A program made the translations under genes and the position numbers. The notes beneath the pieces are model-generated. The model was not told the origin of the DNA and did not search any database. It worked only from the letters and a program-made list of their open reading frames with translations. Positions 24,564 through 30,774 of a DNA stretch of 64,000 nucleotides are shown here, one piece after another (position 1 is the stretch's first letter; each line of letters opens with the position of its first letter). Source of the DNA: a virus; the IMG/VR virus record IMGVR_UViG_3300035188_000277, positions 1 through 64,000 of that record; one strand, given 5' to 3'.

Positions 24564-25307
24564 GTGTCAAAAGATAAAAAGAAAAGTTATCGTTCGATCT
24601 TTATATCTGATGTGCACCTTGGAACCCGTCACTCTAACGCAAAATTGTTATTAGAATTTTTAAAAGAAACAGAAGCCGACAGATATTATCTTGTTGGTGA
24701 TATCATTGATGGCTGGATGATGCGCAAAAACGTTTACTGGCCACAAGAACATAACGAAGTCGTGCAATTCTTTTTAAAACAGTCAAAGAAATCTGTTGAA
24801 GTTATTTTTGTCATAGGTAACCATGATGAGTTCCTTCGTGAATATTCGGGAACCGAGATGGGTAATATTAAACTGGTTAACGAAGTAATACATCATGGAG
24901 AAAATAATAAAAAATATCTAGTCATACATGGCGATCAGTTCGACCTTGTCACTAAAAACGCAAGATGGTTAGCATATATTGGCGGCTGGATGTATGATCG
25001 AATGATTGACATAAACCGTTATTTACAATGGGTTTATAATGCTCTTAACATAAATGGTTTCTCTCTATCTGCTTGGGCGAAATCTAATGTCAAAGAAGCA
25101 GTAAACTTCATTGGAGACTACGAAAAGGTAGTTGCCGATGCAGCCAAAAGGAGATGCGTCGATGGGGTTATTTGCGGTCATATACATTCTGTTAATATAT
25201 CTACTATTGATGGTATTGAATACGTAAACTGCGGTGACTGGGTGGAATCCTGCACTGCCATTGTTGAACATTACAATGGTAAATTTGAGATCATAAGGAA
25301 ACTATAA
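24564..25307 (+). CDS. plcP: PlcP-like metallophosphoesterase (phospholipase C type)
   Basis: 247 residues from GTG. Calcineurin-type metal motifs D16-V-H18, GD46, GNHD (85-88), H122, GHIH (205-208). The sequence resembles proteins usually labelled UDP-2,3-diacylglucosamine diphosphatase (LpxH), but the long KARWLAYIGGWMYD ... WAKSNVKEAVNFIGDYE type region and partner gene fit alphaproteobacterial PlcP, which cleaves phospholipids under phosphate limitation. It overlaps the glycosyltransferase start. Confidence 0.75.
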   Translation: MSKDKKKSYRSIFISDVHLGTRHSNAKLLLEFLKETEADRYYLVGDIIDGWMMRKNVYWPQEHNEVVQFFLKQSKKSVEVIFVIGNHDEFLREYSGTEMGNIKLVNEVIHHGENNKKYLVIHGDQFDLVTKNARWLAYIGGWMYDRMIDINRYLQWVYNALNINGFSLSAWAKSNVKEAVNFIGDYEKVVADAAKRRCVDGVICGHIHSVNISTIDGIEYVNCGDWVESCTAIVEHYNGKFEIIRKL

Positions 25308-26293
25308 TGAATATTACTATTTTTACTGATGCTTGGGATCCGCAGATCAATGGCGTTGTCACTACGCTGAAGACAACGATCAAGCATCTCGAATCACGAG
25401 GTCACGTAGTGAAGGTGATTCATCCTGGTCTCTATAAACTAACGATACCACTACAACCATCTACTGGCATTTTTATGCCAGTTTTGCCCATGGGTATTGC
25501 TGATGAAGAAGTAAAGAATGCTGACAAGATTCACATCTCAACAGAAGGAGCCATAGGTCTTGCCGCTAGATATAGCTGTAAAAAATACAAGAAGTCTTTT
25601 ACAACTTCCTTTCACACTAAGTATCCGGAATACGTTAAGATACATACTGGTATTTCACCAAGAGTTAGCGGTGAGTATTTTCGTTGGTTCCATAGAGACA
25701 GCAGTGCTGTTATGGTTACAACCCCCAGTATGGTTGATTACTGTAAAGAATTGGGTATCAAACATCTAAAGATTTGGTCACGTGGCGTTGATACAAAACT
25801 GTTCCATCCAATTTACCCAAAGCCAAAGTCCGAACATATCTCGGCTGTATATTGCGGTAGAATATCAGCCGAGAAAAATTTAGAAGCATTTCTTTCTATC
25901 AATAATCCGTCAATCAGCAAAACTCTTATTGGCGATGGACCACAATTAGAAGAATACAAATCTAAATATCCAGAAGCTATCTTTCTCGGTAAGATGAACG
26001 CTAAACAAATTGCTGCAGAACTACCAAAGCATGACGTGTTTGCTTGGCCTTCTCTAACAGACACTTTTGGTTTAGTGGTGTTAGAAGGAATGGCATGCGG
26101 ATTACCTGTAGCAGCATTTAGAAATGATGTCAACGAATATATCATAGACGAAAAGTCAGGTGCGTTGATGGATTGGGATTTTGAAGAAGGTATATTGGTC
26201 GCCAAAACACTAAAACCAGAGGACGCTGTTGCTCGTGCAGCTAAATTCTCTTGGGAAGCGGCGACAGATCAGTTCTTGGAGAACCTATCATGA
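25307..26293 (+). CDS. Glycosyltransferase, Agt-like
   Basis: 328 residues, GT4 family. FTDAWDPQINGVV at the start, and LVVLEGMACGLPVA (E-x7-E region) in the C-terminal half. In Agt, the enzyme glycosylates diacylglycerol left by PlcP. Adjacent to the PlcP-like gene with one-base overlap, which supports this reading. Other acceptors are possible. Confidence 0.7.
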   Translation: MNITIFTDAWDPQINGVVTTLKTTIKHLESRGHVVKVIHPGLYKLTIPLQPSTGIFMPVLPMGIADEEVKNADKIHISTEGAIGLAARYSCKKYKKSFTTSFHTKYPEYVKIHTGISPRVSGEYFRWFHRDSSAVMVTTPSMVDYCKELGIKHLKIWSRGVDTKLFHPIYPKPKSEHISAVYCGRISAEKNLEAFLSINNPSISKTLIGDGPQLEEYKSKYPEAIFLGKMNAKQIAAELPKHDVFAWPSLTDTFGLVVLEGMACGLPVAAFRNDVNEYIIDEKSGALMDWDFEEGILVAKTLKPEDAVARAAKFSWEAATDQFLENLS

Positions 26294-27637: not shown

Positions 27638-28040
27638 AGCCGTAGGCGTTTTCTTCTTCGAGAGAGAATACTGTTCTCTTAATACCAAAGTGTTCGATCG
27701 CTTTCTGGCACCCCGGACAAGGTTCGGCCAGTCCACTTACCCACCCAGTGTCTCCCTTGTTTTGTTTCTTAACACGGTAGACATATAGGGTGGCATCTTT
27801 TAGATCATCTTCTTCGACAACTTTCAATGCTTTGATAATACAATCCACCTCTGCGTGTTTAAAGATCGCATCGATATTCTTTGCGAACCTTTTCTGCAGA
27901 GGATGGGATTTATCTGAGTTGAAACCGACAGAGATAATCTCGTTACGAAGAACGAGACACGCTGCCAGTTTCATCTTCATATTATTGGAAGTAGCTAGTC
28001 TACGGACAAAGTCCATATATTTCTTATCACGAGAACTCAT
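27630..28040 (-). CDS. Deoxycytidylate deaminase-like zinc protein
   Basis: 136 residues. H62-A-E64 and P-C108-P-G-C111 are the zinc and catalytic motif of cytidine/dCMP deaminases. It may convert dCMP to dUMP for ThyX. Overlaps the nuclease gene at its 3' end and the sulfotransferase at its 5' side. Confidence 0.75.
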   Translation of the reverse strand: MSSRDKKYMDFVRRLATSNNMKMKLAACLVLRNEIISVGFNSDKSHPLQKRFAKNIDAIFKHAEVDCIIKALKVVEEDDLKDATLYVYRVKKQNKGDTGWVSGLAEPCPGCQKAIEHFGIKRTVFSLEEENAYGSM

Positions 28041-28587
28041 CTGAGTATCCTAGATTACGAAAGTCTCGGGCGTAGATCTTTCGAACCATATCCACGCTTT
28101 CCGAATCATAATCATTATTATACTCTTCTTTTGAATAAGAGCCAACGTTTATTTTTGGTATACGAATGTTTAGATCTACCTCGAGCTCCCAGAGCTCTTC
28201 GTATCTGTAGATCTTATCCATCTCTGTTATATCTTCTTCAAAGATATAAAAAGATTGATCGTATTTCATAAGAGGAGTTTTCTCGGTAACTTCTCCTACC
28301 ATAATCATGGACAAAAAGTTTTTAAAAGATATTTGTATTTGATTGAATCGCAAAAAATGATGATAATAACTATACGCTCTTGTGAAGGGATTTCTTACGA
28401 CAGAGAACTTGAAGACTTCTGGAGTAATGTTATTATTAAGTTTGAGAACATGATAAGGATCGTGACCGATATGCCATGTTCTTAACCATGGTTGTTCTCT
28501 AAGTTGAGACCTGATAGCGATGCCACCAGTCTTAGGTATATGAACAAAGAGAAGAGGGGGAAGATCCCCCTCTACATTAGTAATCAT
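28027..28587 (-). CDS. Sulfotransferase-like protein
   Basis: 186 residues. FVHIPKTGGIAI (residues about 14-25) is the PAPS 5'-phosphosulfate loop and VVRNPFTRAYSYY (about 63-75) the 3'-phosphate loop. It probably transfers sulfate to a carbohydrate. Shares its first codons with the Ro-like gene's end; a stem-loop spans its codons 6-12. Confidence 0.75.
   Translation of the reverse strand: MITNVEGDLPPLLFVHIPKTGGIAIRSQLREQPWLRTWHIGHDPYHVLKLNNNITPEVFKFSVVRNPFTRAYSYYHHFLRFNQIQISFKNFLSMIMVGEVTEKTPLMKYDQSFYIFEEDITEMDKIYRYEELWELEVDLNIRIPKINVGSYSKEEYNNDYDSESVDMVRKIYARDFRNLGYSDEFS
28553..28573 (-). terminator. Stem-loop just after the Ro-like gene
   Basis: Nine-bp perfect stem (AGAGGGGGA/TCCCCCTCT) with a 3-base loop begins four bases after the Ro-like stop. 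It is followed by a pyrimidine-rich tract, not a clean T run. It could be an attenuator or a 3'-end protector. It lies inside the sulfotransferase start region. Confidence 0.45.
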
Positions 28588-30001
28588 AACGCTCGTTCAT
28601 GATAGTGTCGAGCATAATCGATTCGGGAGTAAAGGTCTCTACGTTAGCCAAACCCTTCACCAGTGCTGGCGAGAATCCAGAAACAAGAGCAACTCCAGAA
28701 GTATCATACTTCACAGGCTGATTACCATACGCAGCATTTAGATTCCAGAACACGATCTTTGGTAGATCATAACCAGCATCCTGATACTTACGAGCAATCA
28801 TCTGTAATGCGCTATCGTCGAAACGAGTGCACTGGTTGAACTGCATGTCTGATAGAATAAGCAGCATGTCAGGCATTTCTTCCTGAGGCACATTACCCTT
28901 CTTAGCTACATCAAGAACCTTATCCAGAGCACGGTGCAGATCAGTAGACATAGCCCACTTAGACTGAACCATCTGCTGGCACTTCTGAACGATATTACCG
29001 TTTAGGTGCAGCAACTGTGGGTTGTCGCTGAAAGTCAAGAAGGTATCCTTGAACGCTCCAGTGTTCTTGTCTGCAAGATACAGACCAAGAGACACAGCAA
29101 CGTCAATGCAAGTAGTACCACTCTTTGAGTTGTATCCACCAGCAGGAGTGGTCATTGAACCAGAAACGTCAACCAAAGGTAGGATACGGGCATCCCCAAC
29201 GAAGTTAGGAAGAGCATCCCACTGAGCCTGAAGATGTCCAAGTTCAGTGGCATCATAGTCGTTTGACCAACGATATGAACATAGACCCTTTAGAACATCG
29301 TAAGGATACACAGCACCAGCGTTCACCTTTACGCCAGCTTCGCCCTTTACGAGCTTCTGAACATACTCAGCAAACTTTACAGAGTGCTTGTTGAATGCCT
29401 TCTTGTAACGAGAAGCAGCAAGAGAAGGAACCTTGTTGTAGTCGATCTCTTCCCACTGCTTTGCGCACATCTGAGTTTCAACAACGTTGGTTAGATTAAC
29501 CAAAGTCTTACGATACTGCTTTGGAGTCATACCAAGGAATGCACGTAGCTCTGCAGCCACTTCACCCTTACGAGGCATCCACTTAGCAACTAGACCAGCA
29601 GTATTCTGGTTAGACAATCCTTCACGGATAAACTCGAACGCTTCCTTACGGACATCGCCCTTTGCAGTTAGGAGATCATCCCAACGACCAAGTTCCGGAA
29701 CCTTATGCACGATACGAGCAGCAAGTGCAGGATCGTTGTCGCATAGGTACTGGAAAATATCACGGAAGATCTTACGTTCACCAGATCCACCACGAGCATC
29801 ACGTGCCCATAGAGCAATACGAGTTGCAAGTTCCTTGTTGGTAACATATGCAGCTACGAAAGCAGGGATGATATCCTTACCACGAGAAGCACCAATGTTG
29901 AAGTATAGATCAACTAGCGGAGACGCAGTTGACTTCAGAGCCTTCATACCATTTTCAGTACGTGCTTCCTGATTCTTCACGGCATTAACAAAAGTAGACA
30001 T
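28577..30001 (-). CDS. Ro60-like (TROVE/DUF2828-type) RNA-binding ring protein
   Basis: 474 residues. N-terminal 1-265 is alpha-helical repeat sequence (IALWARDARGGSGERKIF, VPELGRWDDLL) typical of TROVE/DUF2828 proteins, which form rings binding misfolded and Y RNAs. C-terminal 272-474 is a von Willebrand A domain with an intact MIDAS: D278-V-S280-G-S282, T353, D385. A GGAAAG site precedes the ATG. Seven stem-closed RNA genes lie directly upstream on the same strand, one abutting the start region. Whether it is a true Ro60 orthologue or DUF2828 member cannot be settled by eye. Confidence 0.8.
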   Translation of the reverse strand: MSTFVNAVKNQEARTENGMKALKSTASPLVDLYFNIGASRGKDIIPAFVAAYVTNKELATRIALWARDARGGSGERKIFRDIFQYLCDNDPALAARIVHKVPELGRWDDLLTAKGDVRKEAFEFIREGLSNQNTAGLVAKWMPRKGEVAAELRAFLGMTPKQYRKTLVNLTNVVETQMCAKQWEEIDYNKVPSLAASRYKKAFNKHSVKFAEYVQKLVKGEAGVKVNAGAVYPYDVLKGLCSYRWSNDYDATELGHLQAQWDALPNFVGDARILPLVDVSGSMTTPAGGYNSKSGTTCIDVAVSLGLYLADKNTGAFKDTFLTFSDNPQLLHLNGNIVQKCQQMVQSKWAMSTDLHRALDKVLDVAKKGNVPQEEMPDMLLILSDMQFNQCTRFDDSALQMIARKYQDAGYDLPKIVFWNLNAAYGNQPVKYDTSGVALVSGFSPALVKGLANVETFTPESIMLDTIMNERYDY

Positions 30002-30019
30002 TTCACTTTCCTTTTCTAC

Positions 30020-30078
30020 AGATTGAACTTTGAGTCAAATTATCAGTTTGATTTTCATTGGATTGCTGAACTCAATCT
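30020..30078 (-). ncRNA. Y-RNA-like element 1 (short type)
   Basis: Closing helix AGATTGA/TCAATCT (30020-30026/30072-30078). Read on the minus strand, the 5' helix is followed by TTCAGCAA. It ends just before the Ro-like ribosome site. Short form without tRNA-like module. Confidence 0.65.
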
Positions 30079-30087
30079 AAAATTAAC

Positions 30088-30196
30088 AGGATAGATTTTA
30101 CGTGCTCTACCGACTGAGCTACTCCCCCATAGGGAAGGTGGGGCTCGAACCCACGACCACGGCTGTGTAAAAGCAAAACATTGCGGAAACTATCCT
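30088..30196 (-). ncRNA. Y-RNA-like element 2 with circularly permuted tRNA module
   Basis: Closing helix AGGATAG/CTATCCT. Inside, 30096-30172 is a tRNA body in permuted order: stem TTTTAC/GTAAAA (in place of the anticodon stem), T arm (30138-30154, loop TTCGAGC), acceptor 3' strand (30131-30137), tight loop, acceptor 5' strand (30122-30128), D arm (30104-30119). Acceptor pairing includes G-U pairs that hold only for the minus-strand RNA. The halves resemble the phage tRNA-Val(TAC). It is the first RNA after the 30213 promoter. Confidence 0.8.
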
Positions 30197-30212
30197 AAAA
30201 CTCTATATTACT

Positions 30213-30240
30213 ATTATACTACACTTTGCTTAGAAGTCAA
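30213..30240 (-). promoter_or_regulatory. Sigma70 promoter for the Y-RNA/Ro transcript
   Basis: Read on the minus strand: TTGACT (30235-30240), 16-base spacer, perfect TATAAT (30213-30218). Transcription would start near 30206, ten bases before element 2, and run through element 1 into the Ro-like gene. Confidence 0.75.
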
Positions 30241-30251
30241 GCAAAAATAAC

Positions 30252-30317
30252 AGGATAACATCTTTCTTCGATTACAAGTCGAGTGCTTATTCAGCGATGG
30301 TTTGCTGTAGTTATCCT
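30252..30317 (-). ncRNA. Y-RNA-like element 3
   Basis: Closing helix AGGATAAC/GTTATCCT; CAGCAAACC follows the 5' helix. An internal hairpin has a 7-base loop CTTGTAA on a TCGA stem, resembling an anticodon arm with TGT. Confidence 0.65.
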
Positions 30318-30326
30318 AGAACTAAC

Positions 30327-30377
30327 GGGATCAACTTGGCTTGTTTGTGAGCAACAGTTGAATGCTGAACTGATCCC
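30327..30377 (-). ncRNA. Y-RNA-like element 4 (short type)
   Basis: Closing helix GGGATCA/TGATCCC, extended by AGTTC/AAGTT-type pairing; TTCAGCA follows the 5' helix. Close sister of elements 1 and 7. Confidence 0.65.
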
Positions 30378-30392
30378 AAAACTTTATACAAC

Positions 30393-30499
30393 AGGATATA
30401 TTTTTTAGCTCCATGGCTATTAACCACGATAGGATTTGAACCTATTATCTTCTGTAATAATACAGATGCTTCGACCGAAGTGTTTGCTGAAAATATCCT
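30393..30499 (-). ncRNA. Y-RNA-like element 5 with reduced permuted tRNA module
   Basis: Closing helix AGGATAT/ATATCCT with TTCAGCAAAC after the 5' strand. Inside are an anticodon-like hairpin (30451-30466), T arm (30429-30445, loop TTCAAAT) directly abutting a 7-bp acceptor-like helix (30412-30418/30422-30428) closed by three bases. A D arm is not evident. Confidence 0.7.
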
Positions 30500-30509
30500 A
30501 AAACTAAAC

Positions 30510-30710
30510 TGGATGGTTGAAGGAATTTTTATTATTGTTCTGGAGAGACCGATTAACTCGTACGAGTATATCCTTCAACTCTCCCTATCTAATGATTCTC
30601 ACTAGCAATATTTTCTCTCACCGTAGTGGAGAAACTCTCTGAACAGTAAGAACCAAAGTTCTTACATCGGAGGAGCCTTACGACTCCGAGTGGTTTGCTG
30701 TATCCATCCA
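30510..30710 (-). ncRNA. Y-RNA-like element 6 (long)
   Basis: About 200 bases closed by TGGATGG/CCATCCA, with TACAGCAAACC after the 5' helix. Several internal hairpins are visible, including a perfect 8-bp stem GTAAGAAC/GTTCTTAC. It has no clear T arm. Confidence 0.6.
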
Positions 30711-30719
30711 CAATAAAAC

Positions 30720-30774
30720 AGGATCAACTTGCATTTTTCGTTCAAAGAAAAGTAGTTATTGCTGAACTGATCCT
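30720..30774 (-). ncRNA. Y-RNA-like element 7 (short type)
   Basis: Closing helix AGGATCA/TGATCCT; GTTCAGCAA follows it and CAAGTT precedes the 3' strand, as in element 4. It lies between element 6 and tRNA-Gly. Confidence 0.65.

What the first reader, a model, noticed from the sequence alone, without database searches (positions are those of the whole stretch)
28577..30774. Phage Ro60-like gene with seven adjacent Y-RNA-like genes
Seen: a 474-residue protein with helical-repeat N-terminus and vWA domain with intact MIDAS, preceded on the same strand by seven RNAs each closed by a 7-8 bp helix, with a promoter TTGACT-N16-TATAAT inside the cluster. Known: Ro60 binds Y RNAs that tether it to other RNA enzymes; bacterial and phage Y RNAs near Ro genes have been reported. 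Inferred: this phage runs its own Ro/Y particle, perhaps for tRNA or structured-RNA quality control during infection. Seven copies in a T4-like phage, next to about 27 tRNAs, seems unusual.
Basis: partly seen in the sequence, partly recalled or inferred. Interest (0 to 1): 0.9.

Follow-up and report, generated by a model that had tools for sequence, protein, structure and literature searches.

The report
Phage Ro-like particle with seven RNAs
A phage carries a relative of the human Ro60 RNA-binding protein next to seven small RNA genes that share one presumed docking handle but carry different cargo, some of it shaped like rearranged transfer RNA, and a similar handle is known from an unexplained RNA class of social amoebae.

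Summary
The 474-aa protein (28577-30001, minus strand) is DUF2828 + DUF7788, not TROVE by sequence, but its AlphaFold2 model finds Ro60/TROVE structures as its first six PDB matches; the MIDAS is invariant. A strict scan of the window finds seven RNA-like elements, all at 30020-30774. They belong to a phage-wide family: terminal helix, unpaired N-T-W-C-M-G-C-A-A, variable insert, A-rich 3' side. Model R1 matches 15 of 15 DUF2828 phage records given (E <= 0.0015; nine untrained) and 0 of 7 phages without the gene at E <= 0.01. Inserts are often tRNA parts: 11 of 64 mid-length ones give a tRNA only when circularly permuted, 0 of 64 in each of three shuffles. Best reading: a Ro/Y-like particle with exchangeable tRNA-mimic modules, probably tethers; binding and expression are unproven. 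Seven copies is not unusual. Unexpectedly, the handle resembles Dictyostelium Class I RNAs (RF01414), reported as unique to dictyostelids: 13 of 14 matches at E <= 0.05 in 12 phages lie within 1 kb of the gene, none reaching Rfam's cut-off.

The parts
28577..30001 (-). Ro60-fold protein, 474 aa (DUF2828 + DUF7788; PHROG_850 'RNA-binding protein')
29213..29920 (-). helical N-terminal region, residues 28-263
   Evidence: AlphaFold2 helices; Foldseek to Ro60
28643..29176 (-). vWA-like domain, residues 276-453 (DUF7788)
   Evidence: 9e-47
29156..29170 (-). MIDAS D278-x-S280-x-S282 (with T353 and D385 further on)
   Evidence: invariant in 22 sequences
30020..30078 (-). RNA element, 59 nt, short class, just upstream of the gene
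   Evidence: 47.2 bits; the record's best match to RF01414 (16.9 bits, E 0.161)
30087..30197 (-). RNA element, 111 nt, circularly permuted tRNA insert
   Evidence: 23.8 bits
30098..30162 (-). YrlA-like tRNA-mimic module (T arm, acceptor 3' strand, acceptor 5' strand, D arm) within the 111-nt element
   Evidence: RF02553 model positions 23-87, 42 bits, E 8.5e-8; below Rfam's cut-off of 69
30213..30240 (-). sigma70-like promoter TTGACT-N16-TATAAT between two elements
   Evidence: sequence; promoter-like sites within 90 nt 5' of an element in 38 of 78 loci, in 6 at random positions
30251..30318 (-). RNA element, 68 nt, with anticodon-arm-like hairpin, loop CTTGTAA
   Evidence: (38.0 bits)
30327..30377 (-). 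RNA element, 51 nt, short class
   Evidence: 37.8 bits
30392..30500 (-). RNA element, 109 nt, insert with a T arm
   Evidence: 28.0 bits; fold z -4.05
30510..30710 (-). RNA element, 201 nt, large structured insert
   Evidence: fold z -3.57; not found by model R1
30720..30774 (-). RNA element, 55 nt, short class, next to tRNA-Gly
   Evidence: 50.0 bits

Best explanation
The phage makes its own Ro/Y-type ribonucleoprotein. Shown here by computation: the protein has the Ro60 fold and an intact MIDAS, and the seven RNA elements belong to a family that accompanies this protein family in every DUF2828 phage record searched for it. Inferred: they are transcribed; the terminal helix with the unpaired N-T-W-C-M-G-C-A-A strand is the handle that the protein grips; the insert is the outward-facing module. 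Because the inserts are exchangeable and repeatedly built from tRNA parts (circularly permuted tRNA, lone anticodon arms, in two loci whole tRNA cores closed by the handle), I think the particle most likely works as a set of tethers: each RNA brings a different tRNA-recognising enzyme, of host or phage, to the protein during infection, as the Deinococcus Y RNA tethers Rsr to PNPase. The particle as such I hold at about 0.85; the tether role at about 0.45.
For: Fold: the first six Foldseek PDB matches are TROVE/Ro60 entries (9kop 8.6e-9, 2nvo, 1yvp, 9l5y from Thermus phage phiLo, 1yvr, 9nep). Co-occurrence: model R1 in 15 of 15 DUF2828 records given (of 20 in hand), best E <= 0.0015 in each, nine of them without training sequence; 0 of 7 phages without the gene at E <= 0.01, the gene's absence there checked beside three positive controls that rang. 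Linkage in the window's own group: 202 sense against 28 antisense near the gene, 74 of 74 loci. tRNA mimicry: T arms in 25 of 204 inserts against 0.08 in shuffles, T arm before D arm in 11 against 0; 12 of 64 give a tRNA in some rotation, 11 of them only then, 0 of 64 in each of three shuffles; anticodon-arm-like hairpins in 34 of 218 against 1.1. Large inserts covary: 21 of 33 and 13 of 23 predicted pairs change on both sides in at least one sequence. In Listeria phage CKA15 the homologue CKA15_055 was found in purified virions, 20 peptides, 57.1% coverage (PMC12282133, passages).
Against: No binding or expression was measured for these RNAs. In 10 of the 15 records the best R1 match lies more than 2 kb from the gene, and in 8 of 15 no match lies within 1 kb. 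The elements were collected by demanding a helix, so the 99.7% pairing of A7 is partly by construction. Single-sequence folding of three short window elements is no better than chance. The D-arm test alone is near chance (27 of 204 against 20.9). Mean pLDDT is 77.9 and rmsd to Ro60 entries 7-10 A. No RNA_ligase, RtcB or RNase_PH domain in the phage's own record. The stem is not YrlA's.
Confidence: 0.72

Rival explanations
1. The RNAs are decoys: the Ro-like protein holds tRNA look-alikes that soak up host anticodon nucleases or other tRNA-cutting defences, sparing the phage's own tRNAs.
For: Anticodon-arm-like hairpins, most often loop CTTGTAA, seen in ten loci; L005 carries a D-anticodon-T core with loop CTTTTAA and L009 one with anticodon TCC, closed by the handle; a tRNA cluster next door. 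PMC7790460 names competitive inhibition of the anticodon nuclease as a possible role of YrlA in Salmonella, its fragments not being detected (passages).
Against: 184 of 218 inserts have no anticodon arm by the test, and the classes of about 140-260 nt do not look like tRNA.
Confidence: 0.25
2. The RNAs are real but their protein partner is another one (for example an RRM protein, as for dictyostelid Class I RNAs); the Ro-like gene merely keeps the same company.
For: In 10 of the 15 records the best R1 match lies more than 2 kb from the gene; the known binder of a Class I RNA is the RRM protein Rnp1A (PMC7919456, section 15). Odds raised from 0.12 to 0.15 when the distances were recounted.
Against: Co-occurrence 15 of 15 against 0 of 7, linkage in 74 of 74 loci of the window's group, and a Ro60 fold.
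Confidence: 0.15
3. The elements are decayed tRNA genes of the neighbouring tRNA array, and the repeats and permutations are accidents of tandem tRNAs.
For: Tandem tRNA genes alone can imitate the YrlA module (L065 1239-1314, 27.8 bits).
Against: The handle encloses inserts that are not tRNA at all, some of which covary, and is shared by phages of distant hosts.
Confidence: 0.03

Closest known systems
Ro60 / Rsr (TROVE proteins), incl. Ro60 of Thermus phage phiLo (PDB 9l5y)
   Same: whole-chain fold and MIDAS-bearing vWA half; that Y RNAs are encoded near bacterial Ro60 genes is stated in PMC7790460 (passages)
   Different: no TROVE match by Pfam; 13-17% identity over the six structural alignments; profile match to TROVE chains only at E 0.021
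YrlA bacterial Y RNAs (RF02553)
   Same: circularly permuted tRNA-like module; the permutation is described for the Y RNA structure 6CU1 in PMC11472068 (passages)
   Different: stem sequence differs (YrlA consensus seen); 42 bits against a cut-off of 69; here several insert types in one array
Dictyostelid Class I RNAs (RF01414)
   Same: about 60 nt, 6-bp terminal stem, motif CCUUACAGCAA beside the 5' strand (consensus), 3' CUGU, many gene copies (PMC7919456)
   Different: below Rfam's cut-off (best 29.8 of 41.5 bits); eukaryotic genes with a DUSE promoter; known binder is an RRM protein
'Ro-like RNA binding protein' of mycobacteriophages, 'putative Ro sixty-related protein' of Ochrobactrum phage OC, PHROG_850
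   Same: the same protein family
   Different: in the annotated regions I opened, the RNA elements are not annotated

Membership tests
Ro60/TROVE | TROVE domain by sequence (Pfam) | tested here: not met
   only DUF7788, DUF2828 and a sub-threshold VWA_2 at E <= 0.1
Ro60/TROVE | Ro60 fold | tested here: met
   first six Foldseek PDB matches
Ro60/TROVE | intact MIDAS | tested here: met
   D278, S280, S282, T353, D385 invariant in 22
Ro60/TROVE | binds Y RNA | not testable with these tools
   needs the bench
DUF2828 / PHROG_850 | profile match over the cut-off | tested here: met
   PF11443 86.1 of 29 bits, PF25043 159.6 of 27.1 bits; phrog_850 4.1e-142
YrlA (RF02553) | tRNA-like module | tested here: met
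   30098-30162, E 8.5e-8; tRNA on rotation. One of the seven elements
YrlA (RF02553) | family gathering score and Ro-binding stem | tested here: not met
   42 of 69 bits, model positions 23-87 of 114 only
Dictyostelid Class I RNA (RF01414) | terminal stem, motif beside it, CUGU end, about 60 nt | tested here: met
   short elements only. Motif position T3 has no fixed counterpart; the 5' AAG is seen in Aeromonas, while the window's short elements start TAG or TGG
Dictyostelid Class I RNA (RF01414) | Rfam gathering score | tested here: not met
   0 of 12 phage records over the cut-off

The most novel reading that the evidence does not exclude
The phage RNAs and the dictyostelid Class I RNAs are one kind of RNA: a Y-like RNA whose handle (stem, UUACAGCAA, A-rich strand, CUGU) docks on a Ro60-fold protein of the DUF2828 branch. 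Class I RNAs, reported as unique to social amoebae, would then be the eukaryotic end of a Ro/Y system spread across phages; structural relatives of the protein also occur in giant viruses.
Probability: 0.4. Interest if true: 0.92.

Novelty: new variant of a known kind. Interest (0 to 1): 0.78.

Why it matters
It turns a widespread phage protein of uncertain role (672 of 50,697 phage records) into half of a defined RNA-protein system, supplies candidate RNA partners with a searchable model, shows a natural series of exchangeable tRNA-mimic modules on one handle, and gives a concrete, testable hypothesis for what Dictyostelium Class I RNAs bind.

Tried and rejected
Three papers on bacterial Ro60 and Y RNAs are not held; that likely Y RNAs with tRNA-like domains were reported near Ro60 in over 250 bacterial and phage species (Chen et al. 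2014) is recalled, not read here.

The abundant RNAs CKA15_059-061, which Cucic et al. (PMC12282133) discuss as possible Y RNAs, were considered as expression evidence and rejected: they lie in a ROOL-like RNA (L021 2970-3521, RF03087, 90.1 bits, E 2.4e-18, below the cut-off of 99.1), not in the handle elements (record 25288-25552).

RF01414 alone is weak evidence: it gives one match at 0.0024 in T4, which lacks the gene, rings at E <= 10 in 8 of 14 control genomes, and its best match is away from the gene in 5 of 12 records and absent in 1; only the clustering carries weight. PADLOC and NCBIfam found nothing at E <= 0.01. Regex scans missed elements away from the gene (KVP40, Ochrobactrum, BF, Milchi), later found by R1. 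One scan element (L013 2542) is an ordinary tRNA gene; it was dropped but still counts in the 204, the 219 and the 64. Six of the 80 loci were left out by hand (a near-copy, cut genes or little upstream sequence). In alignment A7, 7 of the 53 candidates were left out by hand.
Full report
WHAT IS THERE. On the minus strand, 28577-30001 encodes a 474-residue protein. Pfam gives DUF7788 (9e-47) and DUF2828 (2.9e-24) and no TROVE; PHROGs gives family 850, 'RNA-binding protein' (4.1e-142); PADLOC and NCBIfam give nothing at E <= 0.01. An AlphaFold2 model from 40 sequences, all from this window and IMG/VR contigs, has mean pLDDT 77.9 and pTM 0.72. Its first six Foldseek matches in the PDB are all Ro60/TROVE entries, among them D. 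radiodurans Rsr (2nvo), Ro autoantigen (1yvp, 1yvr) and a Ro60 from Thermus phage phiLo (9l5y), at 13-17% identity and 7-10 A. By sequence profile the link is faint (TROVE chains at E 0.021). The MIDAS residues are invariant in 22 sequences. So the protein is built on the Ro60 plan without being a TROVE member by sequence.

THE RNAS. A strict scan of the window for T-W-C-M-G-C-A-W preceded by a strand that closes a helix finds seven elements, all on the minus strand at 30020-30774, none on plus. They follow tRNA-Gly and precede the gene. A promoter of good consensus lies between two of them. Model R1, four of whose 46 rows are from the window, finds six of the seven; the 201-nt one is missed.

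A PHAGE-WIDE FAMILY. 672 of 50,697 phage records encode the protein. In 74 of the 80 loci the pattern occurs 202 times in sense and 28 times in antisense within -1500/+700 of the gene, at least once in 74 of 74. In 81 loci (74 + 6 + window) there are 219 upstream elements, 1 to 7 per locus; 93 of 138 gaps between neighbours are 6-14 nt; one element is an ordinary tRNA gene. Consensus: A-G at the start, helix, N-T-W-C-[A/C]-G-C-A-A, A-rich 3' side, T-rich after the helix. R1 was built from 46 short elements on a stated 7-bp helix; all 7 pairs change on both sides, but the elements had been chosen for pairing, so that count is partly circular. The independent test is occurrence. Of 20 DUF2828-bearing records in hand, 15 were given to R1 (the five left out are the three Listeria phages, VpaE1 and S-CoN_Ph1): 15 of 15 match at E <= 0.0015, nine of which gave no training sequence, including KVP40 (7.8e-8), Ochrobactrum phage OC, Serratia phage BF, Pseudomonas phage Milchi and Stenotrophomonas phage DLP_6. 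Linkage outside the window's own group is loose: the best match is more than 2 kb from the gene in 10 of 15 records, and 7 of 15 have some match within 1 kb. Seven phages without the gene (T4, phiKZ, SPO1, S-PM2, RB43, G, lambda) have no match at E <= 0.01; the only one at E <= 1 is 0.269 in G. Their lack of the gene was checked first without and then with three positive controls, all of which rang (the three are rows of the query alignment).

INSERTS. Length classes of 218 elements: up to 72 nt 79, 73-89 nt 7, 90-135 nt 57, 136-185 nt 36, longer 39. T arms occur in 25 of 204 inserts (0.08 in shuffles), with the T arm ahead of the D arm in 11 (none in 50 shuffles); the D-arm test alone is near chance (27 against 20.9). 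ARAGORN finds a tRNA in some rotation of 12 of 64 inserts of elements of 80-140 nt, and in 0 of 64 in each of three shuffles; 11 of the 12 only after rotation. As they stand two give a tRNA: L009 1452, also among the 12, and L013 2542, an ordinary tRNA gene. The window's 30087-30197 is one of the 11, and its core matches YrlA over the tRNA-like module only (42 bits, cut-off 69). L009 and L005 hold tRNA cores in normal order closed by the handle. Anticodon-arm-like hairpins occur in 34 of 218 inserts (1.1 in shuffles, maximum 6), most often with loop CTTGTAA, seen also in the window's 30251-30318. Alignments of the two large classes have covarying pairs (14 sequences, 21 of 33 pairs; 17 sequences, 13 of 23), and these inserts had no Rfam match at E <= 0.5 in the six loci tried. 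A permuted tRNA insert also stands, by eye, in Enterococcus phage EF1 (L118 146-275).

LINK TO DICTYOSTELIUM. Rfam's Class I RNA family appeared unasked among weak matches. Kjellin et al. 2021 (PMC7919456; abstract, passages and sections 10, 11, 14, 15 read) describe a 6-bp terminal stem that covaries, an 11-nt motif beside its 5' strand with T3, C6, C9, A10, A11 nearly identical throughout, 5' AAG and 3' CUGU, about 60 nt, and call the class unique to dictyostelids. Phage elements share this plan, and some the letters UUACAGCAA. In 12 whole phage records (of the 20 in hand) RF01414 gives 14 matches at E <= 0.05; 13 lie within 1 kb of the Ro-like gene and the fourteenth 4.4 kb away; eight of the 14 are in Aeromonas phage 4_4572; none reaches the cut-off. 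In seven control phages there is one such match, in T4 at 0.0024. In five of the 12 records the best match is not within 1 kb of the gene, and one record has none. Position T3 has no fixed counterpart in the phages. No paper in the held open-licence library has both 'Class I RNA' and 'Ro60', and 'DUF2828' occurs in four papers, all on plants by their titles. Whether dictyostelids encode DUF2828 could not be tested; structural relatives occur in Pithovirus LCPAC304, Marseillevirus LCMAC202, Mimiviridae ChoanoV1 and Cafeteria roenbergensis virus.

MECHANISM. Established elsewhere: a Y RNA tethers Rsr to PNPase in D. radiodurans (PMC7790460, passages). Here the conserved handle and the changing insert suggest the same division of labour, with tRNA mimicry to recruit enzymes that read tRNA. 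A decoy role is the main rival. Searches of the phage's own record found no RNA_ligase, RtcB or RNase_PH domain. The CKA15 homologue was found in purified virions (PMC12282133, passages), so delivery with the virion is possible.

NOVELTY. Phage Ro proteins are known (PDB 9l5y; TROVE in a subset of jumbo phages, PMC7824862, passages; a Ro60-related protein in Vibrio phage pir03, with the remark that several phages have YrlA, PMC7765460, passages; phage annotations), and phage Y RNAs with tRNA-like domains are recalled from Chen et al. 2014. Cucic et al. suggested Y RNAs beside the Listeria homologue (PMC12282133; abstract, passages, sections 8, 15, 17 read). New here, as far as the searches in an open-licence library can show: the handle family that goes with DUF2828, its array of insert types, and the Class I resemblance.

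Noticed in passing
L021 2970-3521 (Listeria phage cka18; the same stretch is in cka15): ROOL RNA match (RF03087, 90.1 bits, E 2.4e-18, cut-off 99.1) covers CKA15_059-061; 059 and 060 are the most transcribed phage genes in PMC12282133, which discusses them as possible Y RNAs or small RNAs.
   Followed up: partly
L027 (CKA15_055): The Ro-like homologue was detected in purified virions (20 peptides, 57.1% coverage) according to PMC12282133.
   Followed up: no
L120 and L121 (Aeromonas phage 4_4572): A denser array than the window's: ten R1 matches in the record, nine within 5 kb of the gene; by eye some inserts hold anticodon-arm-like hairpins.
   Followed up: partly
T4 NC_000866 132052-132103 (-): RF01414 match at E 0.0024 in a phage without the gene; T4 has no R1 match at E <= 1.
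   Followed up: no
Campylobacter phages F371, F375, F341, NCTC12673, CP30A: Two places per record match the protein: a second copy or a fragment.
   Followed up: no
L093 2643-2728: Match to selenocysteine tRNA at its cut-off (47 bits) in a viral contig.
   Followed up: no
28027-28587 (-): Sulfotransferase-like protein directly downstream of the Ro-like gene, overlapping its end.
   Followed up: no
L065 1239-1314: Two tandem ordinary tRNA genes imitate the YrlA module (27.8 bits), a trap for YrlA searches in tRNA clusters.
   Followed up: no
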